IMG/VR virus record: IMGVR_UViG_3300031857_000283
Span: 1 to 51,158 of that record
Length of the DNA: 51,158 nt
Source of the DNA: a virus
Strand: one strand, 5' to 3'
In this document: in pieces, positions 6,137 through 50,704 of the stretch
Layout: the number at the start of each line of letters is the position of its first letter
Numbering within the stretch: the stretch's first letter is position 1
Made by a program: the position numbers and the translations under genes
Notes under the pieces: generated by a model
Database searches by the model: none
What the model was told of the DNA's origin: nothing
Seen by the model: only the letters and a program-made list of their open reading frames with translations

Positions 6137-6140
6137 ACCC

Positions 6141-30786: not shown

Positions 30787-32586
30787 ATGCCTCCCTCCCA
30801 AGACCCCTACCGCCTCGCCCAGCAGCAACAAGCAGCCGCCGCGCGCCTCGTCGCCCAGCAGGCCAAACAAACCGCCCAAGAGCAGGAAGCCGCCGCCAAA
30901 GCCGCGCGCAACGCCGAGCTATCGAGACAGGAGCTGGAATACCGGGCGCAGGGCATGATCCCCGTCACCACCGCCGACGGCAATCTCCACCCCGACCCCC
31001 TTTGGGACCAGAAGCAGGCCGAAAAAGCCGCGAAGGAGCAGGAAGCCGCCGCCAAAGCCGCGCAGCAGCAGCAGGCCGCGCAGATCTCCGACCAGTTCAC
31101 GAAAGAGGGCCGGAAGTTTTTCACCTCGAAGGTCACCGGCATGCCCGTGGCCCTCGAATCGGATGCCCAGCTTGAGCAGCAGCGGAAGGACCGCGCCGAG
31201 CAGGCCCGCAAAGCCGCCCTCGATGAGCGCCTCCGCGCCATCGAAACCGCCACCACCGACCCCGCCAAGCGCCGCCTCCCCACCAAAGCCCGCGACAACC
31301 TCGCCAAGCAGGTCAAAACCGCGAAGCAGGAGGCTCTCTTCGCTCTCCAATCCAGCCTACAGGAGCAGGCTAAAGCCACCGACAAAGCCGGCTGGTATGA
31401 CGTGGTGAACAATAACCCCACCCCCGAGGCCCTCACCGCCCAGGAACGCCTCTCCCGCCTTTCCCAGCCAGACGCCGATCTCACCGATCAAGACCTCGCC
31501 GACCTGGAGGCCAACGACGCGACAAAACCCCTCGCCGCCAAAATCCGCAACGCCAGCGCCATCCTCACAAAGGACGACGAGGCCGCCCAGTTCCACGAGC
31601 AGCAGGCCGACACTGCCTTCGATTTGAAGCTCCGCCGCGATGATCCCGCCGCATGGGCAGAGCGCCAGCGCCAGCGCCGCGCCAGCATGTCCCCGCAGGA
31701 ATTGCAGGCCGACCTTGAAGCCTCCACCGCCGATCTCGCCACGCGCTCGCAGGAGATCGACGCCGCTTTCCAGCCCGTCCAAGCCCGCCGCGCCGCTTCG
31801 CAGCAAAAGCTCGATACCCTCGCCCAGCAGGCCGCCGCGCGCCGCCAGCAGGGCCTCACCGCCGGGGAAATCGTGACGTTCACCAAGCCGGACGGCACCA
31901 CCGAGACATGGCCCGCCGATCTCGCCGCCGAATACGAGCGCCAGCAGGCCCTCGATCAGGAGGCGGAGGCCCAGGATGCCCCCTTGCTCGAAAAGCTCGC
32001 CGCGCAGCACGCCGATCTTCAGGCGGAGGCCGCCCTCCAGCAGGAGGCCGGCCAGTCTCTCCAGACCCGCCAGCGCGCGCAGCAGGATCAAGTCGCAGAG
32101 ACCCTCGAATCCGCCGCGCCCGGCATGGGCGTCGAGTATCGCACCCTCCTCGCCGATCAGGACCAGCGTGCCGAGGCCCTCCGCGCTCAGTTTCAGGGCA
32201 GGGAAGACAGCCCGGAGGCCAAGGCCGCCTTCAAGGCTCTCTCCGACGACATCGCCGCCAAAGCCTCCCTCATCGAGGGCGTCGCCCGGGACGAGGCCAA
32301 GAAGAAAACCACCGCGCTCAATTCGCTCTGGGACAAGTTCAACACCTACGCCTCCGACCGAGATCACCTTTACGATTGGACTGCCAAAGTCAGCACTGAC
32401 ACCGATCTCGCGAACCAAGCCCGCGCGAAAGCGGATGCCGCCTACGGCCAGCAAACCGGCCAGCCCGGCTATTCCTTCCGCAAAGAACTGGACGCGCAAT
32501 TCGACACCGAGGCCAAGGCCCTCGGCATCGATCCTGCCGAGGCCCGCGTTTTCATGGAGACACGCCGGCGGCTCGATTGGAGCAAA
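30787..32586 (+). other. Giant protein: N-terminal coiled-coil region
   Basis: Residues 1-600 are rich in Ala, Gln, Glu, Lys and Arg, with long helical heptads (for example EQEAAAKAARNAELSRQELE). Similar regions start many internal virion proteins. It may mediate packaging or multimerisation. Confidence 0.7.
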
Positions 32587-35500
32587 CCTCTCACCGGCGA
32601 GGCCGTCGAGGCGGCCGACTCCCTCACCGGCCCGCTTTTGCAGCGCCTCGGCATCACGGAGATGCAGGAGCCCCTCCGCACCCTCCCGGATGGCACCCTC
32701 ATCCCCAATCCGGCCCTCGGCTCAGATGAAACCGCCTTCCGCGCCGTCATCGCCAAATCCACCGGCACCGCGGAGCAGAAAAAAGCTGCCCTCGCCCTCT
32801 GGCCGGAATACCGCCGCATGTATGGCGAGACGCTCCTCGCCACCTTTGCCGATCAGACCGCTTTCGGGGAGGACTTCAACCAATGGCGCGAGGAGAACCC
32901 CATGCCCTCAGCCGATCCGGCAGAGCAGGCCCTCGCCTACGCGGACAAAATGAAGAGCCGCCCCGCTTGGCGTCGTTGGGGGGATTTGGTCGCCTCCAAT
33001 GTCACCGCAGGCTTCATGGACATCACCAGCGCCGTGCTCGGCACCGCTGGAGCTGCCTCCGGCTTGGTGTCTGATACCGTCTCCGAAGGCATTTCCTCCC
33101 TCGCCGCAGCCAATGCCGCCAATGCAGGCACCCTGGTCAATGCGCAGGGGGAATTGTCGAACACCGGCCTCGCCGGAGCCATCACCGGCACCATCGCCCG
33201 CATGGCCCCCGGTGTCGCCGCCACCCTCGCCACTGGCTCCATGGCCGGTGCCATGACCTTCGGTGCCATGCAGACCGGCGGCACGCTTTACAGCGAGGCC
33301 TACGGCCAGCTTCGCGAGCAGGGCATGAGCCACGAGGACGCATGGCGTTCCGCTGCTCCCGCCAGCGCCGCCGCTGGTGCCATGACCGCCGCGCTCACCA
33401 AGGTATTCCCCGGTGGTGCCACCGCCATCCTGCAAGATAACGCCGCCCGTCACAGTGTCCGCGCCATGATGGCTGGATTCCTCGCCAGCGGCAAATCCGT
33501 AGCCAAAGGGGCTCTCGATGAAATCCCGGAGGAACTCATCGACGAAGGCGTCTCCCAGCTCGCCCAGGCCCAGGCCGAAGGCCGCGATCCACGCTCCGCC
33601 GTGCGCGACTTCATCACCGGCCTCCCGGAGATCATCGGTGCCGCTGGCATCGTCGGGGGAGGCATGCAGGCTGTGTCTGATTACCGCGACCGCCGCCAGC
33701 AGGCCCCAAGCAGTGCTCCCAGCAACCCCGCGAACCTCCCGGAAAACGTCGCTGCCGCCGAGACAGCCATCGACTCGCTTCAACTCCCGGACGTGGACGA
33801 GGCCACCCTCGCCCGCACCCAGGACGCCGCTCGTGGCGTGCTCTACATCGCTCAAGGCACCCCGCTGACCGAGCTGGACGCGGAAACGCTCGCCGCGCTC
33901 GACATCGTCGAGGACCCGCAAAAACCCGGCACCTTCGTCAACGGCCGCATCGTGCCCGGAAAGAACGGCATCCCGGAGGTGCAGACCTTCGATGCCGGTC
34001 AAGCTCCCGTCGCCAACCCGGACGGCACCGCCGGCATGCGCCCCGTTCGCGTCCGCCTCATCGACGGCCAGCCCGTCATTTCCCAGGCCACGCTCGACAA
34101 GCTCGGCCAGATCCTCCCCGCCGTCCGCGCCGCCATTCCCCTCGATGAAAAACAACGCCTCCAGCAACTCACTCAGCCGCCCGCAGGTGGACCAGCTCCT
34201 GCCAATGCCACCCAAAGCCCGGTTCAAGTTTCTCCTGCAAATGGGCCGGACTCGGCACGAGGCGAAAGCCCTCCTGCACCAGCACAACCTGAACCACCGG
34301 TAACCGCCGGGAGTCTGGAGCCCGCCGCGCAGCAACGCGCCACCGAGCTTGCCACCCTCCTCGAAGACCGCGGCCTCACCGCCCCGCAGGCCGCCCACGC
34401 CGCCAGCAAAGTCATTGAGGCCCAGGGCATCGTCGGAGCCAGCGCTGAGGAGCAATACGCCGCCGGCATCGACGACGAGCTTTTCAAACTCGGCTGGGTG
34501 AAACCCCAGACACGCAAGAAATACGAGTTCTTCGGCCGCTCCGGCACCCCACCCACCAGTGATGCGGGCACTCCTGCCCGCACCGCCCCCGCCGACGCCA
34601 CCGACCCCTTCACCGTCACTCCGGTTACTAAGGTCACTCCGGTCACCTCCCCGCCCGCCAAAGCCACCACCGACCTCGCCGACCGCGTCGTCGTGGCCAA
34701 GCAGCGCGCCATGAAGGCCGTCCCCGTGGCCTCGCGGAAACGATTTGTAAAATTCGTCTCGCCGCTCACCACCCAGCTCGCCCGCTTCCAAAACGCTTTC
34801 CCCGGCGGCATCGTGTTCACCGATGGCCAGGCCAAGGACGACCTCAATTACACCGGCGCAGGCATTTCCGTGGCAGAGGCCACCACCGCGCCCCGGCTCG
34901 ACGTGAACCTCGCGGAACTCTTCAAGTCCGCCGATCACCTCGAAGAAAAAGACCTCGCCGCCTTCACCCGCCGCGCCGTCATGCACGAGGTCCGCCACCT
35001 CGCCGCCCTGAAGGTCATCACCCCCAGCCAGGCCCGCGCCCTCTGGAAGGACCTCACGCCCGGCCTCCAAGCCCGCGTCTATGCCTCCTACTACGCCGCC
35101 GACCTCCAAAACGCCACCGGCGGCAAACCCCTCTCCCAAAAGCAGCTCCTCACCCTCGCCCAGCAAGCCGTCAGTGGTGTCAATCCGGTCAATAAAGTCA
35201 CCCTCCCGAAAGCCGACCCCTTCCACATGGCGCACGAGTTCCTGCGCATGCTCGACGAAGACGCGGAATTCGCCGGCCAGACCAGCGAGGCCATGGATGC
35301 CTCACCGGCCCTCGGTCAGGCCATCCTCGATTTCCTCCGCAGCGTGCTCGACGAGATCAAGCGCCTCATCGCCACCGATCTCGACCAAAGCACCCGCGTC
35401 CAGCTCAAGGAATTCCAAAAGCTCGTCGAGGCCGCCCGCAAACAGATCCTCGCAGACAACCCCGCCGACCGCCTCGGCTCCACCAAAGAGGCTTCTGTAG

Positions 35501-38500
35501 CTCCCCTCACCACCGCCGCCGACACCCGCGCCAGCGTGCTTCAAGGGAGCGTGGACACTCCTGTCCGCACCGATTTCAACCCCGTGCGCGGCTCCACCGG
35601 CACCGCCTACACGGACAGCAACGATGCCATCGAGTTCCAGTGGGCCGTCGCCGACGTCAACAGCCTCAACATCTCCAACCTCGACAACGGCCGCATCAAT
35701 CCTGATTACCCGCAGGAGTTGCAGCCCCGCGACCGCACCAGCGCCGCCAGTGAGGCCCAGGTGAACGATATCGCCAAGAACTTCAACCTCGACCGCCTCA
35801 GCGCCTCCTCTTCCGTCGGCGATGGTGCCCCCATCGTCGGCCCGGATACCGTCGTCGAATCCGGCAACGGCCGTGTGATGGGTGCCCGCCGGGCACACCG
35901 TGATGCGGGCACTCCTGCCCGCAAGTATCGTGAGGCCCTCATCGCCCGCGCCGGCGAATTCGGCCTCAACGCCGAGCAAATCGAGGCCGTCCCCAATCCC
36001 GTCCTCATCCGCATCCGCACCACCGAGGTCAACCGCACCGCTTTCGTCCTCGCCGCGAACGTCTCCACCATCGCCCCGAAACGCGAGATGGAGCAGGCCA
36101 AGATCGATTCCAAGCAGATCGTGCCCGATCTCTTCGATGCCTTCGTCCCGGCTGAAGACGGGGAAATCTTCACCGCTGCCAATGCGGACTTCATCCGGGG
36201 ATTCGTCTCCGCCGTCATCCCGCCGGCCGAGCGCGGGCAGGTCATCGACGCCTCCGGGAACCTCTCCCAGTCCGGCCTCCGTCGCATTCGCAATGCCCTC
36301 TTTGTCCACGCCTACGGCACCAGCCCGGAGGCTCTCAATGCCCTCGGCCGCCTCACGGAGAGCATCGACGCCACCGATACCGCCCTCGCCCGTTCCCTGC
36401 TCGCTATGGCCCCACGCTTCGCGGAGCAGAACGCCCGCATCGCTTCTGGTGCCCTCTACCCGTTCAGCATCACGGAAAACCTCGCCCAGTCCCTCCAAAA
36501 GCTCGCCGATCTCCGCGCCCGTGGCGAAAAGGTCGAGACGTGGCTCCAGCAGGACCGCATCCCCGGCATTGGGGATGATCCCGGCCCCATCACCACCGCC
36601 CTCGTGCAGTTCCTGCACGAAAACCGCACCCGCCCCCGTCAGGTCCTCGACACCCTCGACCGCTACGCCAAAGCCCTCGATTCCGCCGGCGACCCCCGCC
36701 AGATCAGCCTCTTCGGCGACGAAAAACCCGACGCCGAAACCCTCTGGAAACTCGCCGCGAACTACAAGCAGGAACCCGCGCTCGCGATGGGGCGGAAGAA
36801 CGTCTCTGGCAATGCGGAGAAGGTGGACTTTAGCCGCGACTTGCTCGCGGCCAAAATCGACCAAGACCGCTTTGTTGGTCCGAACTGGTATTACTCGACG
36901 CTCAAGAAACTGCGCAAAGCTCTTGCCATGGGCAAGTCTATCAGCATCGAGAACCGCGACGTGTCCGATTACGGCGGCACACTAGGTGTCATCATTGACG
37001 GGGAAGAAATGCCGCTCACCCGCCGCAAGATCCCCCATCGTGACATGCACTTCCATTTTGGGGTGCAGAGACGCCAAAAGGTGGAAGAGGCACCAACAGT
37101 CAAATCCCCCACCCCAGGCTGGATGGTCGTCATGCCAGACGACTACGACATCGTCGGCTACACCCCTCGCTCCAACAATCGCTTCGAGAACCAACCGATT
37201 TATAGCAACGGCCAAACCCGGATCACCGAGGAAGAAGCCCTCGCGCAAGGAATTGCCAAGGAACGCCTTCCTTACGGTCCCGCTACCACGACCGGCACCG
37301 CCTCGGCCTACGTTGAGCGTCCCACCATCGCCCCCGCCTCCGCCCTCAAGGTTTACAAAAAGCTCACCGCCCAGCAAAAAGAGAAACCCCTCACCGCCGG
37401 CCAAAACCGCGCCCTGGAGGCCGCCGAGCGTTCCCTCGGTCAGCTCTTCCTCTTCGACGAACCCAACCGCACCCTCAAACCCGCCGAGGACCTCGTGCTA
37501 GAGCAGCAAACCGCCAGCCGCGCCACCTTCGCGGATTCCACGCCCGAGCAGCTCCGCCTGTTCATGGCGACGAAAAAAGTGCTCTACTCCAAAGCCGCCA
37601 AAGAGAAGCACCTCCGGCCCATCACTCGCCAGTTGGTCAAGCTCCGCGTGTCGGTGCAGGATGCTCTTGTCCGCGTCGTCCAGGAAACGATCATCCCCAA
37701 AATCCCGCCGCGCCTGCGGGCTCTTATGGACCAGACCGCGGCCGATTATGATGCGTGGCTCAAGCCTCGCATGGCGGCCCTAAAGCCCCAATGGGATGCC
37801 TACAAAGCCCGCTTCACGCCAGCCATCGTCGAAGGCTACAACAAAGACCTCGAAGACCTCGCCTCCGAACTGGGAGTCATGCCCATGACCCGCGTTCCCC
37901 TCAAAGGGGACCGTGGCATGGAAAAAGCCATCCTCGACGCCGCCGATGATTCCGAACGTCTCGGGACCGAAATCCAGCCTGATGTCACCAAGGTCAACGA
38001 CGTCCTTCGCGCTTCCCTCGTGGCTGCTGACGACGAAGGCGTCGCCCGCACCGTCGCCGCGCTTCGCGCCCGCTACAAGGTCGTCAAATTCAAGGACCGG
38101 TTCACCAAACCGGTGGGAGGCTACCACGATTGGAACTTCATCATCGAAGTGGCCCCCGGGTTGAACGCCGAGGTGCAGGTGCATCGCGTCGATTACCTGT
38201 TCTCCAAGGAGATCGGACCCGGCCATCTGATGTATGAGGACTGGCGTAGGCTGGACCGTCTGGTGAAATTGAACCCAGCCCCGGAAATTGCGCAGCTTTA
38301 TCGCCGCCTCTCCAAAACCATGGAGGGTTATTACACCGCCATTGGTCAGGCTTTTGCCATCTCGCGGAATTCGACCTCGTCGATGATTTCACCCTCCGTC
38401 AACACTCTGCCCGAGTCTCGCATCGGGAAGATGCCAGCAGGACCGGCGACCATCGGGACGGGAGGATCTCCATCCTTGTCCCATACAACAGGTGTTCCAT

Positions 38501-44500: not shown

Positions 44501-47500
44501 CCAAACAGGGCATGATTGCCCAGGTGCTCACCGCCGACGCCGTTGGCAATGAGTTCGAAGACCCGAGCGACGAGATCCGCATGAACATGGCCGAGATGGC
44601 CGCCCACACCCAAGGCGACCCCGACATGATCCGCACCGTCCAGGTGGACAAGATTTTCCGCGAACTCCGCGCCGCCTACGAAGGCTTCCAGCGCATGGAC
44701 AGCGGCCGCCGCGCCGACGTGCGCCGCCTCACCCACAACATCACCACAGACACCGCCGCCCTGCCACGCATCGACAGCGAGGCCGAGCGCTACGGGAAAC
44801 TCTGGGACGCCAACGAAGGCAAACCCGTTTACACCTTTGGCGGCACCACCATCGACACCGCCGAGAAAGACGCCAAGATCACGAAGCCGCTCGACCTTTG
44901 GGTGACTGAAAACGCCCGCGAGATGGCCCTCAAAGGCCAGCAGGAGCGATCCGCCAAGTTCACCATTAATGGCCAAGACTTCAATCTCACGGTCAAAGGA
45001 GAATCTGAACCCACCGAGTTCAACGATGGCGGAGTCTATGGCTTTGTCGAAATCGCCAAAAGCGACCGCTACGCCAACTTCCAAGGCGGAGCCCGTGGCG
45101 TGTTGCAAGCGCTCCACCGTTTAACCGAGGCTACCGCCACCCGCCCCGTTGAAACCCGTGCCGAAATCGCCAAGAACAGCAAGAAACTCGCGCAGATCGA
45201 ATCCTACTTGGCGAAGGAGCAAGGCTTCCCCCGCATGGAGGAGCTTCAAGCCATCCAACGCGAGCGCCTTGAGCTGCAACAGCGCATCAATGCCCGCAAC
45301 GCCCCGGCCCCTAAACCGCCAAGCGACAACACCGTCCGCCAGGGCCTTGTCATTCCTCCGCTTACACAGGCCGACGCCGTGCTCCTCACGCCCGAGGTCA
45401 ATGCCGCCCTCGCGCAAGCTGTCATCACCGACAATAGCCTTGTGCTCCCCGAGCAACTCGACCGCAAACTCTACGAGAAGGTAAACCGCGCCCTCGAATC
45501 CGCCGGCGGAGTCTGGAGCAAACGCGACAAAGCCCATCTTTTCGCGGGCGACCCCCGCCCCTACCTCGGCCTCGCCGAGATGCCCGAGGACGCCACCCTT
45601 GCCAAAGCCTCCACCCAGGTCTATACTCCCACCTCGTATGACACCGCCGCGCCTGACCCCTTCACCGGTTTCCCCAGCCTCATCACAGGCTCCCAGCTCT
45701 CTCGGGAACAAGGACGTGCGATCAGCCATGCGCATGCCCAACGCCTACGCGCAGGCCTGTCATCACGCCCAGACAACGGGCAAGCTGGCCCCGCACTTGC
45801 AGCAAGTCGCGCAGGAACTCTCAGCGTAAAAAGTGATGCGGGCACTCCTGCCCGCAATCTGCCTCCCGTCCCCGTCCTCTCGAACTCCCAGTTCGCGAAG
45901 CTCCAAAAACTCCCCCTCATCGGTGAAGGAGCCGAGGCCAAAGTTTACGCCGACCGCACCCGCGGCGTGGTTTACAAAGTCCTCCAAGGCTACGCCCCCG
46001 TCCCCGGCGTCATCGGCTCCACCGCCCTCGGCGTCTGGCCCCAGGTGTATTACACCTCCAGCGGCAAGCTCGACTACGCCTTCGCCCCTGCCGAGCGCCC
46101 GCGCCAGCTCGCCGTCCGCCTCGCCGTCCAAACCCTCCTCGGCGGCACCCCCACCGAAATCGTCGGCATCGCCCCCGAGGGCCACATCATCCTCAAGCAG
46201 CCCTTGAGCCCCAATCCCTCCATCGGCTCCGAATCCGCGCCTCCGGCGTCGTCCTCGTCCTCGTTCTCCTACTCGTCCTCGACCGTTTTCGACGCCCGCA
46301 ACCGCGCCGGCCTCGTCGAGATCCCCAAAGCCCTCCTCGCCGATCCCAACGCGCCGCGCACCTTCCTCGCCGTCGTCGAGGGCCGCCCGTGGCTCCTCAT
46401 GGACCTGCACCCCGACAACTTCGTCGGCGACAACCAGGCCCAAGGCCGCATCAACGACGCCATCGTCGGCCAGCTCACCGCCACCCACCTCGCCAAAATC
46501 CCCGGCCTCGCCCAGCTCGTCAAAGACGCCGCCGCCCGCGCCCGCGACCTCGGCGACCGCGCCGACCGCTTGTTCATGGCGACAAAGCGTGTAGAGTCCC
46601 CCATGGCATCCGACTCCGGGGCCGCCCAATCCAACACAGAGCCTTCGCCGGGCGGTCTTTCTGAGGCGGAAGTTCTTTTCCGCCGCTTGTCGGGAAAATA
46701 CAACGAAGAAATTGATCCGCTTCCGCAAAGCGATTTTGACCCTGATCAGCTTTCCAAAACCGTTCAATTTGCGGGCCGAGAATGGGAAATTGAAATCAGC
46801 AACTGGGCATTCCGTGCATGGGACAAAGCCGATGCAGACAACAATTACACGGCGCATCTCAATAATGAACTCGAAATCATCTCCGATAATGAAGAGGGTG
46901 ATGTGCCTGAACACATTGCGGACATCTGGGAAAAAGCGCCAGAGTCATGGTGGGAAGTTCCAACAGTCGATGAAAGCGACCCCACCACATGGGCACCCGA
47001 GCAATCTTCGTATGCCGTGCAAACCAATGATGGCGAATCCGGATGGCAGGATGACATTCAAACGCTGAATCTCAAAGAAGCTGTTGCTGCCTACACATCA
47101 GAAAAAAGCGAAGACAAACGTCTGATTTTTTACACCGGTGAAACCACGCAAGGCAAAGACCGTTTTGGATTTTGGGGTGATATGCCGCAAATGGAGGTTT
47201 TGGCCCGCCCGTCATTTGTGGCAAAGTTGCTAAACGTGTTTCCTGGGATGACCCGCGAGGAAGCTCAGGACATTGCTGCATCGCGCAACGACGACAACAC
47301 GGATGCGTGGCTGGTAGCTCAAGCCTACGCCCGCCATCGCTACACCGACTACGACGACCGCCTGCGCGCCGCCCGCGAAATGGATCAAGACACCAGCGCC
47401 GAGCGGGCAAAAGCACGGTTTGAACTGCGGGACACCATTGAATCCGTCATGGATCGCTGGTCAACGCCTCCAACAAAAACCGCCACTCCAGTTTCCCAGA

Positions 47501-50500
47501 GTGACGGTTTGAATCAGATCGGTAACGATGTGACGGCTCGCCTTGCGGCGTCTGAGCCAATGCCGGAAGCTCAGAGGGTCGTTGGCACGTGGCCAACGAA
47601 AAGTGACCCATCCACCGCCAAAGTCAACCCTGAATCCTCCCGTGCCGCAGATGGCACGCTGGCGAAAGCCACCACCACCGTCACTCCGGTTTCTCTCCCC
47701 GCACGCGCCGCTACTTACGTCGGCAAGAAGCTCCTCGACACCGCCGAGGGCACCATGAACCTCACCAGTGCCGCCACGCGTGCCACTGGCCTCGAAAACC
47801 CACTCCAAAAACTCGGCTGGAACCACCTCGACCGCGCCCTCTCCGCCAAGCTCGCCGCCCTCGCTCGCTGGACCGATGGCCGCACCGGTGCTAGCCAAAC
47901 GGTGGCTAAATGGACCAACGCCACCCCGCAGAAGCTCCGCGACGCCGCCCACGCCCTGAAGCGTGAATTCTTCCCGGACTCCGTCCTGCCCCGCGAGATC
48001 CTCGCCAAGAAGCGCGAGATGGAGATCAAGACCGCCATGGGCTCCCAGAAAGCCATGGACCTCGTGCGCGCCCTCCAGGGCTCGCCAAAGTTCTCCACCC
48101 TCGCCTACCCGCCCGGTTTCGCGGAAAACCCCACCCACCGCCGCCACCTCTACGAGGCCATGACCGGCGAACGCGATCTCGCCACCCTGCCAAAAGAGTT
48201 GCAGGACCTCGCCGCGAAGCTCCGCGCCATGCTCGTCGAAATCGGCCGCGAGGCCGTGAAGCAGAACCGCATGAGCACGGACACCTTCGACAACCTCCGC
48301 ACCACCTACATGCCGCATTTCTACGAGGAGGACGTGCAGAAGGAAAAGAGCCTCTTCCAGCGCTTCCGCCTCGGCGTGCGCGACATCCTCGCCCAGCGCA
48401 CCACCGCGTGGCACATCGAGGACACCGCGCAGAAGGACAGCACCGGCCAGCCCCGCCTCGTCTCCCACACCGGGAACCAATGGCGCTTCCGCAACCAGCA
48501 GCACATGGACGCCTTCTTCGAGGACTTCATCCAGCAGCAGGCCCTCGCTGAACTCCAAAGCCGCTACGGGAAGAAATTCCGCAGCCTCACCGCCGCGGAT
48601 CTCATGACGCCCTCGAAGCTCGATCCCGAGATTCGCGGACGCCTCCAGGAGATCAAACGCACCCTCCACCAGCGTTACAAACGCCAGCGCCCCCTCACCA
48701 TCGCGGAGCAGGAAAAAGCCGGGCTCATCATGGACCCCGTCTATGCCATCGCCCGCTACGCCGCCCAGATGGCGCATGACAACAGCACCGCAGAGTTCTT
48801 CAACCACGTCGCCGCCCAGCCCGCCCTCGTCTCGGACATCGCCACCCCCGGCTTCACCGAGATCCCGGACAACCCGCGCTTTGGCCGCCTCGCCGGGAAG
48901 TTCGTCGAAAACGACGTCGCCGGCCAGCTCCTCGAACTCATCGAGACCCCCGGCATCGCCCTCAAAATCTACGACACCGTCCTCGGCTGGTGGAAGACCG
49001 GGAAAACCGTGCTCAATCCCGGCACCCACGTTCGCAACGTCCTCGGGAACCTCTTCTTCTCCCAGCTCGCCGGCAACAGCGTCTGGAACCCCGGCAACGC
49101 CACCTATTACCGCCAGGCCCTCACCGCCCTCCGCCAGGGCGGCCCCGTGCTCACCGAGGCCTACGACGCTGGCGTCCTCGGGGCCGACTTCGTCTCCGCC
49201 GAACTCCGCCAGACCCTCCGCCAGCTCCTCCCCGATCCCGCCACCATCGTGGACGACGGCAAGGCCCCGACCTTCCTCATGGGCATCGGCAAAGCCATCG
49301 GCCGCTTCATCGGCACCCCCGCCGGCAAAGCCTACAACAACATCGCCGCCCTCTACCAAGCCGAAGACGAAATCTTCAAGCTCGCCGCCTACCTCAAAGC
49401 GAAGGACATGCTGACCGAAGGGGGCGCGGGCACTCCTGCCCGCTCTGCCGCCGCTGCCAACCACGTCCGCCAATGGTTCCCCTACTTCGACAGCGGCACC
49501 TCCGGCACCCTGCGCCTCATCGGCCGCACCGCCATGCCCTTCCTCGGCTTCTACCGCGAATCGATCCGCATCTTCGGCCACGCGCTGAAGGAGCGCCCCA
49601 TCGCCCTCGCCGCCGGTCTCAGCGTGCCCTCCTTCGTCACCTTCCTCTCCGCCATGGCCCTCGGCCTCGATGACGACGACCTCGAAGAGATCCAGAAAGA
49701 CATGCGCGGGAAAGCCGGGAAGCTCCTCGGCCCCACCCCGCTCGAAGGCATGCCGCTCTTCTCCATGCTCCTGCCCGTCCGCAGCGACACCGGCCAGGTC
49801 CAGCAGTTCGACATCTCCGCCGTTCACCCCTTCGTGGATTTCCTCGGCACCCGCGTCGAGTCCGGCCCGCAGGAGGACTGGTGGCAGAAGACCCTCCGCA
49901 GCTTCGTCGCCGCCGGCCCCATCGGCAGCCTCCTCTACGCCCAGATGACCGGACGCGACACCTTCGGCGACCGCACCTTCGTCGAAGACAACATGACCGG
50001 CACCGAGAAGCTCGCCGCCCGACTCGACAACGCCGCCAAAACCCTCCTCCCGCCGCTCTTCCCCGGCGGCACCGGTTTCGAGACTCTTTCCAACGCCGGC
50101 GAGCGCTCCACCAACAAGACCCTCGAAGTCCGCAGCCCCACCCAGGCCGCCGTCCGCGTCCTCGGGGGCCTCGACGTCCGCAATGCCACCCCAGACCTCT
50201 ACCGCCTCGCCGACGACTGGCGCAAAGCCCACGGCTACGAGGTGCAGGAAGGCATGGACTACGGCAGCACCACGCCCGCCAGCCGCGCGCGGAAGGCGCT
50301 CTTTGCCCAGCTCGCCCAGGACCAGCCAAACCTCACCGCGGTGAAGAACATCCTCACCGCCCTCGACAAGATGGGCCACCCCGTCCGCACCGAGCAGGAC
50401 GTGAACAAGCTCTTGTTCTACCGCGATCCGCTGAAGCTCATCGGCGGCAACAAGTCCAAAGGCATCACCGCCCCCGACGCCCAGGCCCAATTCCGCGCCA

Positions 50501-50601
50501 GCCTCCAAGGCGAAGCCCGCGCCGCACTGGATAACGCCCTCCAAGAATACCAGCGCATCAAAGCCACCGCCCCCTCCATCCTCGCCCGCGCCCGCCAGTA
50601 A
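30787..50601 (+). CDS. Giant polyvalent protein of 6604 residues
   Basis: One uninterrupted ORF takes up almost 39 % of the genome. Domains in order: Ala/Gln-rich coiled coil (1-600); hydrophobic helices (about 732-962); HExxH zincin-like domain (His1400-His1404); DdrB/ParB-like domain (about 1595-1990, GNGR at 1693-1696); RelA/SpoT-like domain (about 2365-2520); ParB-like domain (about 2600-2725); N6-methylase (about 3005-3350); SF2 helicase (about 3900-4620); kinase (about 5035-5255); and a C-terminal large-polyvalent domain (about 5640-6604). P1 DarB shares the methylase-helicase pair and is injected with phage DNA to block restriction. By analogy this protein may be packaged and ejected. 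Intergenic-type repeats and small nested ORFs lie in its linkers, which suggests an operon fused into one gene. Confidence 0.85.
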   Translation: MPPSQDPYRLAQQQQAAAARLVAQQAKQTAQEQEAAAKAARNAELSRQELEYRAQGMIPVTTADGNLHPDPLWDQKQAEKAAKEQEAAAKAAQQQQAAQISDQFTKEGRKFFTSKVTGMPVALESDAQLEQQRKDRAEQARKAALDERLRAIETATTDPAKRRLPTKARDNLAKQVKTAKQEALFALQSSLQEQAKATDKAGWYDVVNNNPTPEALTAQERLSRLSQPDADLTDQDLADLEANDATKPLAAKIRNASAILTKDDEAAQFHEQQADTAFDLKLRRDDPAAWAERQRQRRASMSPQELQADLEASTADLATRSQEIDAAFQPVQARRAASQQKLDTLAQQAAARRQQGLTAGEIVTFTKPDGTTETWPADLAAEYERQQALDQEAEAQDAPLLEKLAAQHADLQAEAALQQEAGQSLQTRQRAQQDQVAETLESAAPGMGVEYRTLLADQDQRAEALRAQFQGREDSPEAKAAFKALSDDIAAKASLIEGVARDEAKKKTTALNSLWDKFNTYASDRDHLYDWTAKVSTDTDLANQARAKADAAYGQQTGQPGYSFRKELDAQFDTEAKALGIDPAEARVFMETRRRLDWSKPLTGEAVEAADSLTGPLLQRLGITEMQEPLRTLPDGTLIPNPALGSDETAFRAVIAKSTGTAEQKKAALALWPEYRRMYGETLLATFADQTAFGEDFNQWREENPMPSADPAEQALAYADKMKSRPAWRRWGDLVASNVTAGFMDITSAVLGTAGAASGLVSDTVSEGISSLAAANAANAGTLVNAQGELSNTGLAGAITGTIARMAPGVAATLATGSMAGAMTFGAMQTGGTLYSEAYGQLREQGMSHEDAWRSAAPASAAAGAMTAALTKVFPGGATAILQDNAARHSVRAMMAGFLASGKSVAKGALDEIPEELIDEGVSQLAQAQAEGRDPRSAVRDFITGLPEIIGAAGIVGGGMQAVSDYRDRRQQAPSSAPSNPANLPENVAAAETAIDSLQLPDVDEATLARTQDAARGVLYIAQGTPLTELDAETLAALDIVEDPQKPGTFVNGRIVPGKNGIPEVQTFDAGQAPVANPDGTAGMRPVRVRLIDGQPVISQATLDKLGQILPAVRAAIPLDEKQRLQQLTQPPAGGPAPANATQSPVQVSPANGPDSARGESPPAPAQPEPPVTAGSLEPAAQQRATELATLLEDRGLTAPQAAHAASKVIEAQGIVGASAEEQYAAGIDDELFKLGWVKPQTRKKYEFFGRSGTPPTSDAGTPARTAPADATDPFTVTPVTKVTPVTSPPAKATTDLADRVVVAKQRAMKAVPVASRKRFVKFVSPLTTQLARFQNAFPGGIVFTDGQAKDDLNYTGAGISVAEATTAPRLDVNLAELFKSADHLEEKDLAAFTRRAVMHEVRHLAALKVITPSQARALWKDLTPGLQARVYASYYAADLQNATGGKPLSQKQLLTLAQQAVSGVNPVNKVTLPKADPFHMAHEFLRMLDEDAEFAGQTSEAMDASPALGQAILDFLRSVLDEIKRLIATDLDQSTRVQLKEFQKLVEAARKQILADNPADRLGSTKEASVAPLTTAADTRASVLQGSVDTPVRTDFNPVRGSTGTAYTDSNDAIEFQWAVADVNSLNISNLDNGRINPDYPQELQPRDRTSAASEAQVNDIAKNFNLDRLSASSSVGDGAPIVGPDTVVESGNGRVMGARRAHRDAGTPARKYREALIARAGEFGLNAEQIEAVPNPVLIRIRTTEVNRTAFVLAANVSTIAPKREMEQAKIDSKQIVPDLFDAFVPAEDGEIFTAANADFIRGFVSAVIPPAERGQVIDASGNLSQSGLRRIRNALFVHAYGTSPEALNALGRLTESIDATDTALARSLLAMAPRFAEQNARIASGALYPFSITENLAQSLQKLADLRARGEKVETWLQQDRIPGIGDDPGPITTALVQFLHENRTRPRQVLDTLDRYAKALDSAGDPRQISLFGDEKPDAETLWKLAANYKQEPALAMGRKNVSGNAEKVDFSRDLLAAKIDQDRFVGPNWYYSTLKKLRKALAMGKSISIENRDVSDYGGTLGVIIDGEEMPLTRRKIPHRDMHFHFGVQRRQKVEEAPTVKSPTPGWMVVMPDDYDIVGYTPRSNNRFENQPIYSNGQTRITEEEALAQGIAKERLPYGPATTTGTASAYVERPTIAPASALKVYKKLTAQQKEKPLTAGQNRALEAAERSLGQLFLFDEPNRTLKPAEDLVLEQQTASRATFADSTPEQLRLFMATKKVLYSKAAKEKHLRPITRQLVKLRVSVQDALVRVVQETIIPKIPPRLRALMDQTAADYDAWLKPRMAALKPQWDAYKARFTPAIVEGYNKDLEDLASELGVMPMTRVPLKGDRGMEKAILDAADDSERLGTEIQPDVTKVNDVLRASLVAADDEGVARTVAALRARYKVVKFKDRFTKPVGGYHDWNFIIEVAPGLNAEVQVHRVDYLFSKEIGPGHLMYEDWRRLDRLVKLNPAPEIAQLYRRLSKTMEGYYTAIGQAFAISRNSTSSMISPSVNTLPESRIGKMPAGPATIGTGGSPSLSHTTGVPSTSKNSAVAGNESGIFTPDNTPETPSNQGIRITTANIDRYAGNVDVSALQGRQKDWRQAFDVPAKPQMVPLAKLVSPKNELESPRFKAGLKPDPRQTAANFIARAIAGEPGVKKRAPLDVSANPDGTYTIHDGNATAQALMLAGWKAVPVNEVNPVTLAKASTTLSPEYQAAWEDFTAEGSSSFDLFPAAWPLYQQQIQKEPEAAVQKRILDAYLQAMKAYGAITNTAPRPENFGYLWEDEKPFMEAIRGTVVGDPVAGSGNFLAKARTTPDTSPDLFGFNAGLGLDTLLTPRQKEAKITQSQQLDLFGGTPNDGSPSTRTQPGSQRREPTRRTSRTPAPPEQSQGPESLFGDLFSQRDDGQRISASRLPRKPGPRYKRTGSGDVGDGVSGPTDQGTTDKPADSPQGDPPGLSLAPALIPQPADPADRNHRITGTGTVAPKGNKAKLEANFAAMKLVRELDAAGRNPTPEEKQVLAAYTGWGWMKEAFNTVRARKYDDLKLRAERYIATKPRWDSRYFAKWQDFYADNATEEDRRILSWADTYLETHERLKTELSEKEFHAAEKSTLNAHFTTPSIIDAMWKAVAKLGFKGGRAMEPGGGIGHFIGVQPEDIANRTQWEATELDDVTARILARLYPQARVNSAMSAPNREVSGMGFQNARIPNNSLDLFISNVPFAKQGPGKAKSEFGQDFNLHNYFFARALSKVKPGGLIAFITTSNTMESSRAQRDYLNNHGQLVAAVRLPNNAFKENAGTEVTTDILILRKPDDSDFVGEPWRERIKVGEDTVTSKRQREGSNAQRIDDWLGSIDPEWIPADEALVEPFQAWMKGGRPASGQKRKALIDVLNRLHGFNPQKLDFRAPIYVNEYFARHPENVLGTNRLVGSMYGPGEYTVTPKDEALDSQLGKFVDRLPEDIMSQSATNDFEAKAAERGDKVDSYVEREGRIYQVTKEGLEPVEWQVMPGMDSKAKAAAERKTAIFRQWAKLRDAAVALVKLEANPLADESEMKNARLMLNQVYDRTVEKHGALSKRRNNNYRFLDDDPEAALLQALEDEERSTAKDGKVTYTYTKTDIFHRRLIEPQEAPTTAASLEEAVSISMAWEGTVNPQYVADLLGTDAGLARQQLIEGGHVFEDPSSGMLMTADEYLSGPVSERLRLAQEAVKDSPQYARNVTALREALPPHKAISEASVILGQRWVPDSIYTAFARFLGIEDGTVEFSKELNSFSVRGEGSNEEWNVGNQGAKDILDAVMNNMTLVYRRYVRGEGMQTDEELTATLRVKADEMRDAFSQFVKTTEEQVADPEFEGQTIPIPDIAEREFNQKVNGIKPPNFVGDWVKLPGQSGIIWLKPFRKAVLARLITQGRGMMAHGVGSGKTYNQIALAMELRRLGKARKPVIVVQNSTINQFAASFRKAYPQAKILVATPRSYNAQTRARFTARMATGDWDAIIMTHSNVDLIGHSAETVTAYFAKELEELDAAIMASDGSDQQSDLQKARDSLIEKRDEMMQALGERQDDTLNWEDIGVDALIVDEAHAFKNAPVVTNRGRDIKNIPSSGVGSQRAVSMMMKTRSVRERNGQKGVFFATGTPVSNSMAEAFIMLRYIAPDLLEANGIRNFDDFASQYGDVVSQAESTWDGKVKMVDRFAKFVNGQQLINLVRSVFDVAMGNESLGIDVPTVKGGKPRQIVVPATAANMSFNNWIVQSVSPSWERITRKDIEANPKLSAVPIMTMQAGIAAALDPRLIHDKAPDDPNSKVNTAIREVLRIYKAGTERKTAQVLFSDLFNSFNMDILEGFADHPFADLGENSIRKNAKLRDDGSPPRGNFNLGEDIKAKLIAAGVPEREIIVVTDQKDEALTNIFDKVNDGDIRIIIGSTGRLGVGVNIQERLAAVHHLMPPRDFKPAMMEQRNGRIIRQGNLHAEWRDIALVDVVERLGKTRFPTKDDKGKALSPSKRATAAKTWLAENDKDGSIKTAADTAAREFDIEIIEYGVEKSLDSAVYSMMAAKQGMIAQVLTADAVGNEFEDPSDEIRMNMAEMAAHTQGDPDMIRTVQVDKIFRELRAAYEGFQRMDSGRRADVRRLTHNITTDTAALPRIDSEAERYGKLWDANEGKPVYTFGGTTIDTAEKDAKITKPLDLWVTENAREMALKGQQERSAKFTINGQDFNLTVKGESEPTEFNDGGVYGFVEIAKSDRYANFQGGARGVLQALHRLTEATATRPVETRAEIAKNSKKLAQIESYLAKEQGFPRMEELQAIQRERLELQQRINARNAPAPKPPSDNTVRQGLVIPPLTQADAVLLTPEVNAALAQAVITDNSLVLPEQLDRKLYEKVNRALESAGGVWSKRDKAHLFAGDPRPYLGLAEMPEDATLAKASTQVYTPTSYDTAAPDPFTGFPSLITGSQLSREQGRAISHAHAQRLRAGLSSRPDNGQAGPALAASRAGTLSVKSDAGTPARNLPPVPVLSNSQFAKLQKLPLIGEGAEAKVYADRTRGVVYKVLQGYAPVPGVIGSTALGVWPQVYYTSSGKLDYAFAPAERPRQLAVRLAVQTLLGGTPTEIVGIAPEGHIILKQPLSPNPSIGSESAPPASSSSSFSYSSSTVFDARNRAGLVEIPKALLADPNAPRTFLAVVEGRPWLLMDLHPDNFVGDNQAQGRINDAIVGQLTATHLAKIPGLAQLVKDAAARARDLGDRADRLFMATKRVESPMASDSGAAQSNTEPSPGGLSEAEVLFRRLSGKYNEEIDPLPQSDFDPDQLSKTVQFAGREWEIEISNWAFRAWDKADADNNYTAHLNNELEIISDNEEGDVPEHIADIWEKAPESWWEVPTVDESDPTTWAPEQSSYAVQTNDGESGWQDDIQTLNLKEAVAAYTSEKSEDKRLIFYTGETTQGKDRFGFWGDMPQMEVLARPSFVAKLLNVFPGMTREEAQDIAASRNDDNTDAWLVAQAYARHRYTDYDDRLRAAREMDQDTSAERAKARFELRDTIESVMDRWSTPPTKTATPVSQSDGLNQIGNDVTARLAASEPMPEAQRVVGTWPTKSDPSTAKVNPESSRAADGTLAKATTTVTPVSLPARAATYVGKKLLDTAEGTMNLTSAATRATGLENPLQKLGWNHLDRALSAKLAALARWTDGRTGASQTVAKWTNATPQKLRDAAHALKREFFPDSVLPREILAKKREMEIKTAMGSQKAMDLVRALQGSPKFSTLAYPPGFAENPTHRRHLYEAMTGERDLATLPKELQDLAAKLRAMLVEIGREAVKQNRMSTDTFDNLRTTYMPHFYEEDVQKEKSLFQRFRLGVRDILAQRTTAWHIEDTAQKDSTGQPRLVSHTGNQWRFRNQQHMDAFFEDFIQQQALAELQSRYGKKFRSLTAADLMTPSKLDPEIRGRLQEIKRTLHQRYKRQRPLTIAEQEKAGLIMDPVYAIARYAAQMAHDNSTAEFFNHVAAQPALVSDIATPGFTEIPDNPRFGRLAGKFVENDVAGQLLELIETPGIALKIYDTVLGWWKTGKTVLNPGTHVRNVLGNLFFSQLAGNSVWNPGNATYYRQALTALRQGGPVLTEAYDAGVLGADFVSAELRQTLRQLLPDPATIVDDGKAPTFLMGIGKAIGRFIGTPAGKAYNNIAALYQAEDEIFKLAAYLKAKDMLTEGGAGTPARSAAAANHVRQWFPYFDSGTSGTLRLIGRTAMPFLGFYRESIRIFGHALKERPIALAAGLSVPSFVTFLSAMALGLDDDDLEEIQKDMRGKAGKLLGPTPLEGMPLFSMLLPVRSDTGQVQQFDISAVHPFVDFLGTRVESGPQEDWWQKTLRSFVAAGPIGSLLYAQMTGRDTFGDRTFVEDNMTGTEKLAARLDNAAKTLLPPLFPGGTGFETLSNAGERSTNKTLEVRSPTQAAVRVLGGLDVRNATPDLYRLADDWRKAHGYEVQEGMDYGSTTPASRARKALFAQLAQDQPNLTAVKNILTALDKMGHPVRTEQDVNKLLFYRDPLKLIGGNKSKGITAPDAQAQFRASLQGEARAALDNALQEYQRIKATAPSILARARQ
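32980..33670 (+). other. Giant protein: hydrophobic segment
   Basis: Residues about 732-962 hold Gly/Ala-rich hydrophobic stretches such as ITSAVLGTAGAASGLV, GAITGTIARMAPGVAATLAT and IIGAAGIVGGGM, with the helical IPEELIDEGVSQLAQAQAEG between. These could insert in the host inner membrane during DNA ejection, as phage internal core proteins do. Confidence 0.6.
34564..34581. repeat. Family C hairpin inside the giant gene, copy 1
   Basis: GCGGGCACTCCTGCCCGC is translated in frame as part of DAGTPAR, in a low-complexity linker. Confidence 0.9.
34690..35450 (+). other. Giant protein: zincin-like metallopeptidase domain
   Basis: Residues about 1302-1556. VMHEVRHLAALK contains H1400-E-V-R-H1404, the HExxH zinc-binding motif. 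A third ligand could be in HMAHEFLRMLDEDAEF further on. The domain is interrupted by a nonamer repeat at 35179-35205 (VNPVNKVTL). Confidence 0.65.
35179..35205 (+). repeat. Family A nonamer repeat inside the giant gene
   Basis: Three in-frame units are translated as VNP VNK VTL. Weaker copies occur at about 34617-34655 and 38946-38973 at other linkers. Confidence 0.8.
35551..35568. repeat. Family C hairpin variant inside the giant gene
   Basis: GTGGACACTCCTGTCCGC keeps the hairpin with compensating changes in both arms and the same CTCC loop. It is translated as VDTPVR. Compensating changes point to selection on the fold or to a related element type. Confidence 0.75.
35571..36770 (+). other. 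Giant protein: DdrB/ParB-like domain
   Basis: Residues about 1595-1995. VVESGNGRVMGARRAH carries the GNGR motif (1693-1696) of the ParB-like nuclease fold seen in P1 DdrB-type and other polyvalent proteins. A long helical region follows (SGLRRIRNALFVHAYG). A family C hairpin is inserted right after the motif (35905-35922). Confidence 0.65.
35905..35922. repeat. Family C hairpin inside the giant gene, copy 2
   Basis: GCGGGCACTCCTGCCCGC is translated as AGTPAR inside the ParB-like domain. A second palindrome (GTGCCCGCCGGGCAC, 35882-35896) lies just upstream. Confidence 0.9.
37879..38340 (+). other. Giant protein: RelA/SpoT-like nucleotidyltransferase domain
   Basis: Residues about 2365-2518. 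DVTKVNDVLRASLVA (Asp2405, Arg2408) resembles the D-x-x-R segment of RSH synthetases. YKVVKFKDRFTKPVGGYHDW resembles the kDRf..P..GY.d segment. AEVQVHR (Glu2462, Gln2464) matches the conserved E-x-Q motif, and GHLMYEDWR (His2480-Arg2487) matches the H-x-x-Y-e-x-x-R helix. It could make (p)ppGpp-like alarmones, pyrophosphorylate another nucleotide or tRNA, or be inactive. Confidence 0.6.
38346..38549 (-). CDS. Small antisense ORF within a linker of the giant gene
   Basis: The ORF encodes 67 residues from ATG to stop on the opposite strand. The sequence is protein-like: a beta-type start (AEFFDVDGTPVVWDKDGD), a Pro/Gly turn and a helix (VLTEGEIIDEVEFREMAKA). The giant frame over the same bases is Ser/Thr/Pro-rich with no pattern. 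This suggests the antisense frame was the original gene. No family recognised. Confidence 0.45.
   Translation of the reverse strand: MKIPDSFPATAEFFDVDGTPVVWDKDGDPPVPMVAGPAGIFPMRDSGRVLTEGEIIDEVEFREMAKA
38580..38960 (+). other. Giant protein: second ParB-like domain
   Basis: Residues about 2598-2725. It contains PLAKLVSPKNELESPRFKAG and IHDGNATAQALMLAGWKAVP with Asp2703 and Asn2705. This is the DGN-x-R-like motif position of ParB-fold domains, but the usual Arg is replaced by Thr/Ala, so catalysis is doubtful. Confidence 0.5.
39437..39754 (+). CDS. Small overlapping ORF in another frame within the giant gene
   Basis: The ORF encodes 105 residues; the second ATG (39440) gives 104. The sequence is helical and ordered: LLQPERSQVLNAVNRLAAHP, then PKALKAFLAISFPSEM, an acidic middle and FLAQLTKEQRTSLRTALKAI. 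The giant frame here reads as disordered Arg/Pro/Ser/Gly. It lies exactly between LDLFGG, a typical protein end in these systems, and the start of the methylase-helicase part. It looks like a former separate gene. Confidence 0.5.
   Translation: MMALLQPERSQVLNAVNRLAAHPAHPHLLSNPKALKAFLAISFPSEMTDSESVPPDSQESQDLATSELEAETSVMEFLAQLTKEQRTSLRTALKAIHPDCLLLLP
39800..40830 (+). other. Giant protein: DarB-like N6-adenine methylase domain
   Basis: Residues about 3005-3350. LNAHFTTPSIIDAMW precedes motif I MEPGGGIGHF (3166-3175). The catalytic motif appears as SNVPFA (Asn3243-Phe3246), an NPPF/Y variant with Val in place of the first Pro, as in DarB-like and related phage and plasmid proteins. FNLHNYFFARALSKVKPGG follows. 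Confidence 0.8.
42480..44640 (+). other. Giant protein: SF2 (SNF2-like) helicase domain
   Basis: Residues about 3900-4620. Walker A is GVGSGKT (Gly3938-Thr3944). DEAH motif II is VDEAHAFKN (Asp4099-His4102), and FFATGTPVSN is motif III. Motif V is GSTGRLGVGVN (about 4440-4450), and QRNGRIIRQGN (Arg4475, Arg4478) is motif VI. All key residues are present, so ATP-driven translocation is expected. Confidence 0.88.
45728..45829 (+). CDS. Short overlapping ORF in another frame within the giant gene
   Basis: The ORF encodes 33 residues beginning MRMPNAYAQACHHAQTTG and ending VAQELSA-stop. It is compact and helical, whereas the giant frame here is low complexity. The stop lies eight bases before a family C hairpin (45838), an arrangement like the intergenic one at 2142-2174. 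Weak evidence because of its length. Confidence 0.35.
   Translation: MRMPNAYAQACHHAQTTGKLAPHLQQVAQELSA
45838..45855. repeat. Family C hairpin inside the giant gene, copy 3
   Basis: GCGGGCACTCCTGCCCGC is translated as part of SDAGTPARN, between the methylase-helicase part and the kinase domain. Confidence 0.9.
45890..46545 (+). other. Giant protein: polyvalent-type Ser/Thr/Tyr kinase domain
   Basis: Residues about 5035-5255. IGEGAEAKVYAD (5045-5056) is a glycine-rich loop, and VVYKVLQ holds Lys5064. MDLHPDNFVGD (Asp5206, His5208, Asp5210, Asn5211, Asp5215) gives the catalytic loop and metal-binding Asp in the compact form seen in polyvalent kinases. The lobe between them is interrupted by the 34-bp family D repeat. 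Confidence 0.7.
46249..46282 (+). repeat. Family D 34-bp repeat inside the kinase domain
   Basis: It is identical to the intergenic copy at 2558-2591 and is translated as SSSSFSYSSST. It lengthens a loop of the kinase domain. Confidence 0.85.
46600..47640 (+). other. Giant protein: module of distinct composition
   Basis: Residues about 5272-5618 are acidic and Trp-rich (AFRAWDKADADNNYTAHLNN; WEKAPESWWEVPTVDESDP). They use many A/T-ending codons, unlike the C-ending bias on both sides. The module begins after a LFMATKRV junction and ends before LAKATTTVTP. Family unknown; it looks recently acquired. Confidence 0.55.
47690..50601 (+). other. Giant protein: C-terminal large-polyvalent domain (LPD38-like)
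   Basis: Residues about 5635-6604. The segment VLNPGTHVRNVLGNLFFSQL, the late MPFLGFYRESIRIFGHAL and the DPLKLI ending resemble the C-terminal domain shared by many very large phage proteins. Several amphipathic to hydrophobic helices are present. A family C hairpin at 49426-49443 is included in frame. Confidence 0.6.
49426..49443. repeat. Family C hairpin inside the giant gene, copy 4
   Basis: GCGGGCACTCCTGCCCGC is translated as part of GAGTPARS within the C-terminal domain. Confidence 0.9.
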
Positions 50602-50670
50602 AAGCACGTTGTTCACGCTTCAGCGTGCCTCCCCGTCAATCCGGTCAATCCCGTCAATAAAGTCACCCAC
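50602..50670 (+). repeat. Small hairpin and family A nonamers after the giant gene
   Basis: CACGCTTCAGCGTG at about 50614-50627 forms a hairpin with a two-base loop. Four nonamer units follow at 50635-50670 and lead directly into the terminator. Confidence 0.75.
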
Positions 50671-50704
50671 GCGGCCCACCCTCACCGGTGGGCCGCTTTC
50701 TTTT
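50671..50704 (+). terminator. Rho-independent terminator
   Basis: GCGGCCCACC (50671-50680) pairs perfectly with GGTGGGCCGC (50687-50696) around a six-base loop. TTTCTTTT follows. It is the only classical intrinsic terminator I found. It ends the portal-giant operon and separates it from the early operon. Confidence 0.9.

What the first reader, a model, noticed from the sequence alone, without database searches (positions are those of the whole stretch)
30787..50601. A 6604-residue polyvalent protein occupying over a third of the genome
A single ORF carries at least nine recognisable modules: coiled coil, hydrophobic helices, zincin, two ParB-like domains, RelA/SpoT-like, N6-methylase, SF2 helicase, kinase and a C-terminal LPD38-like domain. 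Injected phage proteins with several anti-defence activities are known (P1 DarB is the model), but this number and variety on one chain is extreme. It may be an ejected multi-tool against restriction, nucleotide-based and kinase-linked defences.
Basis: partly seen in the sequence, partly recalled or inferred. Interest (0 to 1): 0.88.

Follow-up and report, generated by a model that had tools for sequence, protein, structure and literature searches.

The report
Giant phage-carried anti-defence protein
A virus that probably infects Verrucomicrobiota bacteria encodes one unbroken 6,604-residue protein that joins a DNA-protecting enzyme pair to several other conflict enzymes; it is an unusually large member of a known class of phage 'polyvalent' proteins thought to be carried in the virus particle and delivered with its DNA.

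Summary
The ORF is real: 30787..50601 (+), 6604 codons, 38.7% of a 51,158-base virus record, with coding-type GC3 along its whole length and no break. Independent viral contigs carry intact relatives of 5747, 6304, 6457, 7210 and about 7292 residues, so it is neither an artefact nor the largest. It belongs to the known class of phage polyvalent proteins: the 1,900-residue core is a DarB-type adenine methylase plus SWI2/SNF2 ATPase dyad (PHROG DarB-like, E 1.9e-271). Well supported: ddrB-ParB, methylase, SF2 ATPase and a RelA/SpoT synthetase whose best solved relative is the toxin Tas1. Moderate: zincin (HEVRH, degenerate in several relatives). Weak: kinase and LPD38-like C-terminus. Not supported: second ParB. 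The C-terminal 900 residues (46% identical) recur in a 7.3-kaa protein with different cargo, so cargo is swapped. Most likely it is packaged and ejected; the dyad shields DNA from restriction while the RelA/SpoT, ParB and kinase-like parts disturb nucleotide pools or host proteins. A homologue is proven in JC1 virions. A curious extra: four in-frame copies of a REP-like palindrome shared with a Verrucomicrobiota genome.

The parts
30787..50601 (+). giant polyvalent protein ORF, 6604 aa
   Evidence: coding GC3 throughout; intact homologues
30787..32286 (+). N-terminal Ala/Gln/charged region (aa 1-500), probable coiled coil, no homologue found
   Evidence: composition; no relative by phmmer
34774..35466 (+). 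zincin-like metallopeptidase region (aa ~1330-1560), HEVRH at aa 1400-1404 (34984-34998), downstream HEFLRM
   Evidence: alignments; first His is Glu in four of seven relatives
35620..36018 (+). ddrB-like ParB superfamily domain (aa 1612-1744); homology with relatives continues to aa ~2000
   Evidence: PF18763 E 4.1e-30; P1 DdrB 39.5% identity
37777..38586 (+). RelA/SpoT-type alarmone synthetase domain, Tas1-like (aa 2331-2600); acidic catalytic pair D2405 and E2462 invariant in six aligned sequences
38704..38991 (+). proposed second ParB-like segment (aa 2640-2735), by eye only
   Evidence: no profile support:
39535..45306 (+). DarB-type core (aa 2917-4840); its methylase-ATPase part is conserved in nearly all relatives examined
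   Evidence: PHROG 10089 E 1.9e-271; 59% identity to L010
39814..40806 (+). adenine-N6 methylase of the dyad, NVPF motif at aa 3243, preceded by LPD36-like GWG motif at aa 3051
42484..44256 (+). SWI2/SNF2 SF2 ATPase: Walker A GVGSGKT (aa 3938), DEAH (aa 4099), motif VI QRNGRIIRQ (aa 4474)
   Evidence: PF00176 E 1.1e-8; motifs
45433..45636 (+). small domain (aa 4883-4950) otherwise found in short methylase-like proteins in Verrucomicrobiota genomes (53-54% identity)
   Evidence: ORF ends
45916..46656 (+). kinase-like domain (aa 5044-5290): GxGxEAxVY, VVYKV, KQP, DLHxxN, RIND motifs
   Evidence: weak fold support
47284..47460 (+). DUF2293-like segment (aa 5500-5558), just under the Pfam cut-off
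   Evidence: PF10056 24.7 bits vs 25, E 2.5e-5
47890..50598 (+). C-terminal mostly helical region (aa 5702-6604), possibly LPD38 / virion-structural type; shared with a 7.3-kaa protein of other cargo
34559..34581 (+). REP-like palindrome copy 1 in the ORF (reads DAGTPAR)
35900..35922 (+). REP-like palindrome copy 2, inside the ddrB-ParB domain
45833..45855 (+). REP-like palindrome copy 3, just before the kinase-like domain
49421..49443 (+). REP-like palindrome copy 4, in the C-terminal region
50671..50704 (+). terminator-like hairpin and T-run after the giant gene (last gene of its block)
   Evidence: sequence read by eye

Best explanation
It is a phage-type polyvalent protein of the DarB-like class from a tailed, probably temperate phage of Verrucomicrobiota. 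Proposed working: made late, loaded into the virion through its helical terminal regions, ejected with the DNA. In the new host the DarB-type methylase-ATPase dyad tracks on the incoming DNA and marks or shields it from restriction (function shown for P1 DarB, inferred here). The ddrB-ParB domain acts with it in loading or as an NTP-regulated nuclease; the RelA/SpoT domain makes (p)ppGpp or (p)ppApp and shifts or drains nucleotide pools; the kinase-like domain may phosphorylate host proteins; the zincin may cut the chain into working pieces. Shown here: the intact ORF, the domain homologies with catalytic residues kept (dyad, RelA/SpoT), the phage gene setting, and swapping of cargo around a conserved dyad and, in one other phage, around a conserved C-terminus. 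Shown elsewhere for a homologue: presence in virions. Inferred: ejection, each activity, cleavage, host.
For: ORF integrity. DarB-like PHROG E 1.9e-271 and helicase/methylase Pfam matches; catalytic motifs intact. ddrB-ParB E 4.1e-30 and 35-39.5% identity to P1 DdrB and Acinetobacter phage proteins. RelA/SpoT profile: Tas1 2.5e-11, YwaC 1.4e-6, Rel 5e-5, with both catalytic acids invariant. Phage context: integrase, replication initiator, terminase, capsid-like, portal, endolysin. Homologue gp69 of JC1 in CsCl-purified virions (PMC9144972); P1 DarB and DdrB in the head (PMC9024508). Class definition and domain list PMC5512222. Cargo swap: closest dyad relative L010 (59%) carries a zeta-toxin-like kinase upstream of the dyad where the window has RelA/SpoT; G413/L048 shares only the C-terminus (43-49%) and carries RadC and Kinase-PolyVal. 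Host: methylase relative in a Verrucomicrobiales MAG, kinase relative in a Verrucomicrobiota genome, exact 20-mer palindrome 13 times in one of 289 Verrucomicrobiota genomes.
Against: No virion proteomics or expression data for this phage. The zincin's first zinc-binding His is replaced in four of seven relatives, so self-cleavage is not a conserved need. Structure models of the C-terminus (pLDDT 39) and kinase (42) are too poor to confirm folds. The methylase motif is NVPF, not NPPF, although that is the common form in its IMG/VR relatives. P1 DarB is packaged through a signal in its first 30 residues (PMC9024508); no such signal could be tested here. A related prophage was not found in the genome that shares the palindrome.
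Confidence: 0.75

Rival explanations
1. Mainly a structural/ejection protein: a giant internal virion protein whose helical ends build an ejection channel or core, with enzymatic cargo of secondary importance or partly decayed.
For: Large helical N- and C-terminal regions; PHROG 'virion structural protein' match in C-terminal homologues (1.8e-5); internal virion and tape-measure proteins among weak fold hits; degenerate zincin in relatives.
Against: Catalytic motifs of the methylase, ATPase and RelA/SpoT domains are intact and conserved; the most conserved part of the protein is the enzymatic dyad, not the ends.
Confidence: 0.15
2. Expressed only inside the cell (as a lysogen or late in infection) as a weapon against competing phages or plasmids, never ejected.
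For: Integrase present; PMC5512222 allows use against rival elements; RelA/SpoT toxins serve as anti-phage effectors elsewhere (PMC12691689).
Against: Position after the portal and endolysin genes; JC1 homologue is a virion protein; P1 DarB and DdrB are head proteins.
Confidence: 0.08
3. Assembly or sequencing artefact that joins separate genes.
For: Unusual length; in-frame repeats inside the ORF could in principle mark misassembly.
Against: Uniform codon-position bias; homologous giant ORFs of 5.7-7.3 kaa in at least six independent contigs, several with the same order of zincin, ParB and dyad.
Confidence: 0.01

Closest known systems
Phage-type polyvalent proteins (Iyer et al. 2017, PMC5512222)
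   Same: Disparate domains on one chain, late-gene setting, methylase-SWI2/SNF2 dyad with LPD36-type GWG motif, DdrB-ParB, zincin and RelA/SpoT domains from the published list
   Different: Upper end of the size range; Tas1-like synthetase, DarB dyad, ddrB-ParB and a divergent kinase-like domain together; kinase does not match PF18762; C-terminus does not match PF18857 directly
DarB-like giant proteins of Bcep22-like podoviruses (JC1 gp69 4515 aa, BcepMigl), Klebsiella phage LASTA, Ochrobactrum phage POI1126 (4841 aa) and Microcystis phage Mwe-JY07 (4985 aa)
   Same: Same dyad, 28-33% identity over about 1500-1750 aa; giant single ORF with the virion genes
   Different: The window's protein is about 1,600-2,100 residues longer; flanking cargo unrelated by sequence; some of the others are annotated as lytic transglycosylase fusions, which was not found here
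Phage P1 DarB (about 250 kDa) and DdrB
   Same: Methylase-ATPase dyad (DarB) and ddrB-ParB domain (DdrB, 39.5% identity) are present
   Different: P1 keeps them as separate proteins; here they are fused with further cargo
Tas1/Apk1 (p)ppApp synthetase
   Same: RelA/SpoT synthetase domain by profile, best solved relative (2.5e-11)
   Different: Delivered by a phage (inferred), not type VI secretion; no immunity partner was sought; product unknown

Membership tests
phage-type polyvalent protein | two or more domains of unrelated biochemical activity on one chain | tested here: met
   methylase, SF2 ATPase, ddrB-ParB, RelA/SpoT by profile
phage-type polyvalent protein | encoded near virion genes of a phage or prophage | tested here: met
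   portal, endolysin, terminase and capsid-like genes in the window
phage-type polyvalent protein | carried in the virion and transferred at infection | not testable with these tools
   only by homology: JC1 gp69 in virions (PMC9144972)
phage-type polyvalent protein | zincin-like peptidase for processing (common, not obligatory) | tested here: inconclusive
   HEVRH present at aa 1400, EExxH in four of seven relatives compared
DarB-like dyad | EcoKI/TaqI-type adenine methylase fused to SWI2/SNF2 ATPase with LPD36 upstream | tested here: met
   PHROG 10089 E 1.9e-271, PF00176, Walker A/B and motif VI, N-x-P-F motif, GWG motif; the LPD36 motif's fourth residue is W rather than G/A/S
DarB-like dyad | protects ejected DNA from type I restriction | not testable with these tools
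   experiment needed
DdrB-like ParB domain | match to PF18763 above cut-off | tested here: met
   104.8 bits vs 27.6
RelA/SpoT synthetase (RSH) | synthetase domain with catalytic acidic pair | tested here: met
   profile hits to Tas1, YwaC, Rel; D2405 and E2462 invariant; three of six aligned members hit PF04607, the window's own sequence does not
Kinase-PolyVal (PF18762) | match to the family profile | tested here: not met
   no Pfam hit at E up to 10 (aa 4821-5273) or up to 1; no significant similarity to the PF18762 member of L048
LPD38 (PF18857) | match to the family profile | tested here: not met
   no hit in the window at E up to 10; one homologue of the region at 0.04
second ParB-like domain | match to a ParB-type profile or structure | tested here: not met

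The most novel reading that the evidence does not exclude
A little-known clade of Verrucomicrobiota phages builds 5.7-7.3-kaa virion proteins from exchangeable cargo cassettes (RelA/SpoT, zeta-toxin-like, ADP-ribosyltransferase, RadC, kinases) around a fixed dyad or fixed C-terminus, and host-type REP palindromes and phage intergenic repeats have been taken into the reading frame as linkers, possibly acting as the recombination seams at which cassettes are swapped.
Probability: 0.25. Interest if true: 0.65.

Novelty: new member of a known kind. Interest (0 to 1): 0.42.

Why it matters
It shows that the DarB strategy reaches giant size in phages of a bacterial phylum with few isolated phages, and that the same dyad or C-terminus is combined with different conflict enzymes in related viruses. 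Neither the RelA/SpoT-type nor the kinase-like segment has a tblastn match among 50,697 phage records, so both are uncharacterised candidates for enzymes that a phage delivers at entry. The in-frame REP-like palindromes are a concrete case of host-type repeats surviving inside a phage coding sequence.

Tried and rejected
Single-sequence searches for RelA/SpoT (PF04607) and LPD38 (PF18857) in the window found nothing; RelA/SpoT was rescued by a profile of relatives, LPD38 was not. The first kinase query (window 45427-46146) was misplaced and mostly hit a small methylase-associated domain; corrected to 45874-46686. Structure predictions of the C-terminus and kinase with 3-4 sequences gave pLDDT 39 and 42 and were used only as weak hints. 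A search for the C-terminus in phage records and, as a single protein, in viral contigs found nothing; it was found only through L018/L028 and G413. The RelA/SpoT alignment had no stretch conserved enough for a collection scan. Genomes sharing the palindrome hold no detectable relative of the dyad. Hidden frameshift or misassembly was considered and rejected. The second ParB was considered and dropped.

Full report
OBSERVATION. The window is a 51,158-base virus record classed as linear. ORF 30787..50601 + is uninterrupted, 6604 aa. Codon-position GC (0.66/0.46/0.79) holds in every 1.5-kb block, and the chance of so long a stop-free frame at this composition is about 1e-71. It takes 38.7% of the record. 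A terminator-like hairpin with a T-run follows at 50671-50704 (read by eye). Long antisense ORFs (for example 47461..50616 -) are the usual by-product of high GC.

SURROUNDINGS. The rest is a tailed phage, probably temperate: replication initiator (2979-4301), DHH phosphoesterase (5664-7199), integrase (10200-11405), a minus-strand block with a weak major-capsid match (20143-21648) and terminase (22925-24862), then portal (25649-27919), endolysin/amidase (29518-30171) and the giant gene.

DOMAINS. (a) Dyad: aa 2917-4840 matches PHROG 10089 'DarB-like antirestriction' at 1.9e-271 with SNF2 and methylase Pfam matches. Walker A GVGSGKT, DEAH, motif VI QRNGRIIRQ and the methylase N-x-P-F motif are intact; NVPF (instead of NPPF) is the common form in the IMG/VR relatives. 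(b) ddrB-ParB: aa 1612-1744, PF18763 E 4.1e-30; 39.5% identical to P1 DdrB. (c) RelA/SpoT: aa 2331-2600. Pfam misses it, phmmer finds only Tas1 (0.0024), and a profile of six relatives finds Tas1 at 2.5e-11 and then YwaC, Rel and RelA; three of six members hit PF04607. The two catalytic acids (D2405, E2462) are invariant. (d) Zincin-like: HEVRH at aa 1400 with a downstream EFLRM; of eight proteins compared, four have HExxH and four EExxH. (e) Kinase-like: aa 5044-5290, shared with a 2584-aa protein in a Verrucomicrobiota genome and three viral contigs; conserved GxGxEAxVY, VVYKV, KQP, DLHxxN and RIND fit the description of the reduced kinases of polyvalent proteins of Verrucomicrobia and Bacteroidetes prophages in PMC5512222, but PF18762 does not match, and the model is poor although its best fold hits are kinases, OspG first. 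(f) C-terminus aa 5702-6604: helical; homologues touch PHROG 'virion structural protein' (1.8e-5) and LPD38 (0.04); the best weak fold hit is a 'large polyvalent protein associated domain' protein. (g) Extra: a small methylase-associated domain at aa 4883-4950 and a DUF2293-like stretch at aa 5500-5558 just under cut-off. (h) Not supported: the second ParB at aa 2640-2735.

RELATIVES AND MODULARITY. IMG/VR holds giants of 6304 (L008), 7210 (L009), 5747 (L010), 6457 (L021), about 6020 (L015 cut at its 3' end, L030) and 5662 aa (L031). L010 is 59% identical in the dyad and 25% across zincin-ParB but has no blastp similarity elsewhere, and carries a zeta-toxin-like domain (E 3.4e-18) instead. L009 carries zeta-toxin-like and ADP-ribosyltransferase domains. 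G413/L048 shares only the C-terminal 900 residues (43-49%) and carries RadC and Kinase-PolyVal in an open frame of 7292 aa. The chain is thus a frame with exchangeable cargo.

MECHANISM. By homology to P1 DarB, a head protein needed against type I restriction (PMC9024508, PMC5512222), and to JC1 gp69, a 4515-aa protein found in purified virions (PMC9144972), the most likely working is packaging, ejection with DNA, and protection of the DNA by the methylase-ATPase dyad. The RelA/SpoT domain would make an alarmone; whether ppGpp, ppApp or tRNA pyrophosphorylation cannot be told from sequence (toxic relatives do each, PMC12691689). The ParB, kinase-like and zincin parts have only class-level predictions. 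Ejection, cleavage and each activity are inferred.

HOST. Three hints point to Verrucomicrobiota: the only dyad relative found in the genome collection lies in a Verrucomicrobiales MAG, a kinase relative lies in a genome of the same phylum, and the palindrome below occurs 13 times in one of 289 genomes of that phylum and once in another. Other phyla were not scanned for the palindrome or the kinase, so this is suggestive, not proof.

AN UNEXPECTED FEATURE. GTGATGCGGGCACTCCTGCCCGC (hairpin, z -4.2) occurs five times, none expected by chance: once between genes (2151) and four times inside the giant ORF, same strand and same frame, reading (D)AGTPAR; one copy lies inside the ddrB-ParB domain, where homologues have about as many residues. 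The genome copies that were read carry the same GTGAT head and mostly do not lie in long frames. This resembles REP elements and, in coding use, Rickettsia palindromic elements (both from my own knowledge). A 9-base phased repeat (GTCAATCCG...) before many genes also appears in frame in the ORF.

KNOWN OR NEW. The class, the dyad and nearly all cargo types are published; the class contains larger proteins (12,242 aa, PMC5512222). This is a new, large member with a new combination, not a new kind. Size alone is not a surprise; the Tas1-like cargo, the cargo exchange within one clade and the in-frame palindromes are the parts worth following.

Noticed in passing
window 2151, 34559, 35900, 45833, 49421: REP-like palindrome GTGATGCGGGCACTCCTGCCCGC, four of five copies in frame inside the giant ORF (AGTPAR); the exact 20-mer is 13 times in one Verrucomicrobiota genome and in only three other viral contigs.
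   Followed up: partly
window 229, 1113, 2211, 4302, 4897, 5724, 6138, 7218, 8268, 28564, 30687, 50632 and in-frame at 34600, 35176, 38944: 9-base phased repeat GTCAATCCG/GTCAACACC in about 20 places, mostly between genes just before start codons; function unknown.
   Followed up: no
window 605, 2871, 6890, 7576, 7957, 30750: Pyrimidine-rich leaders (TCTCCCAGTCTCAAAGTCTCC) in front of several genes.
   Followed up: no
window 2555-2591 and 46246-46282: A 37-base stretch 97% identical between another gene region and the Ser-rich insert of the kinase-like domain, suggesting copying of a DNA snippet into the giant gene.
   Followed up: no
L048 / G413 (56,528-base viral contig): 7292-aa open frame with the same C-terminus but RadC and Kinase-PolyVal cargo; larger than the window's protein.
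   Followed up: partly
window 47284-47460: DUF2293-like stretch (E 2.5e-5, 0.3 bits under cut-off) inside the giant protein.
   Followed up: no
window 13601-13855: Tandem 36-base repeats (GAAGACGGCGGAACC...), which would code an acidic Glu/Gly-rich repeat.
   Followed up: no
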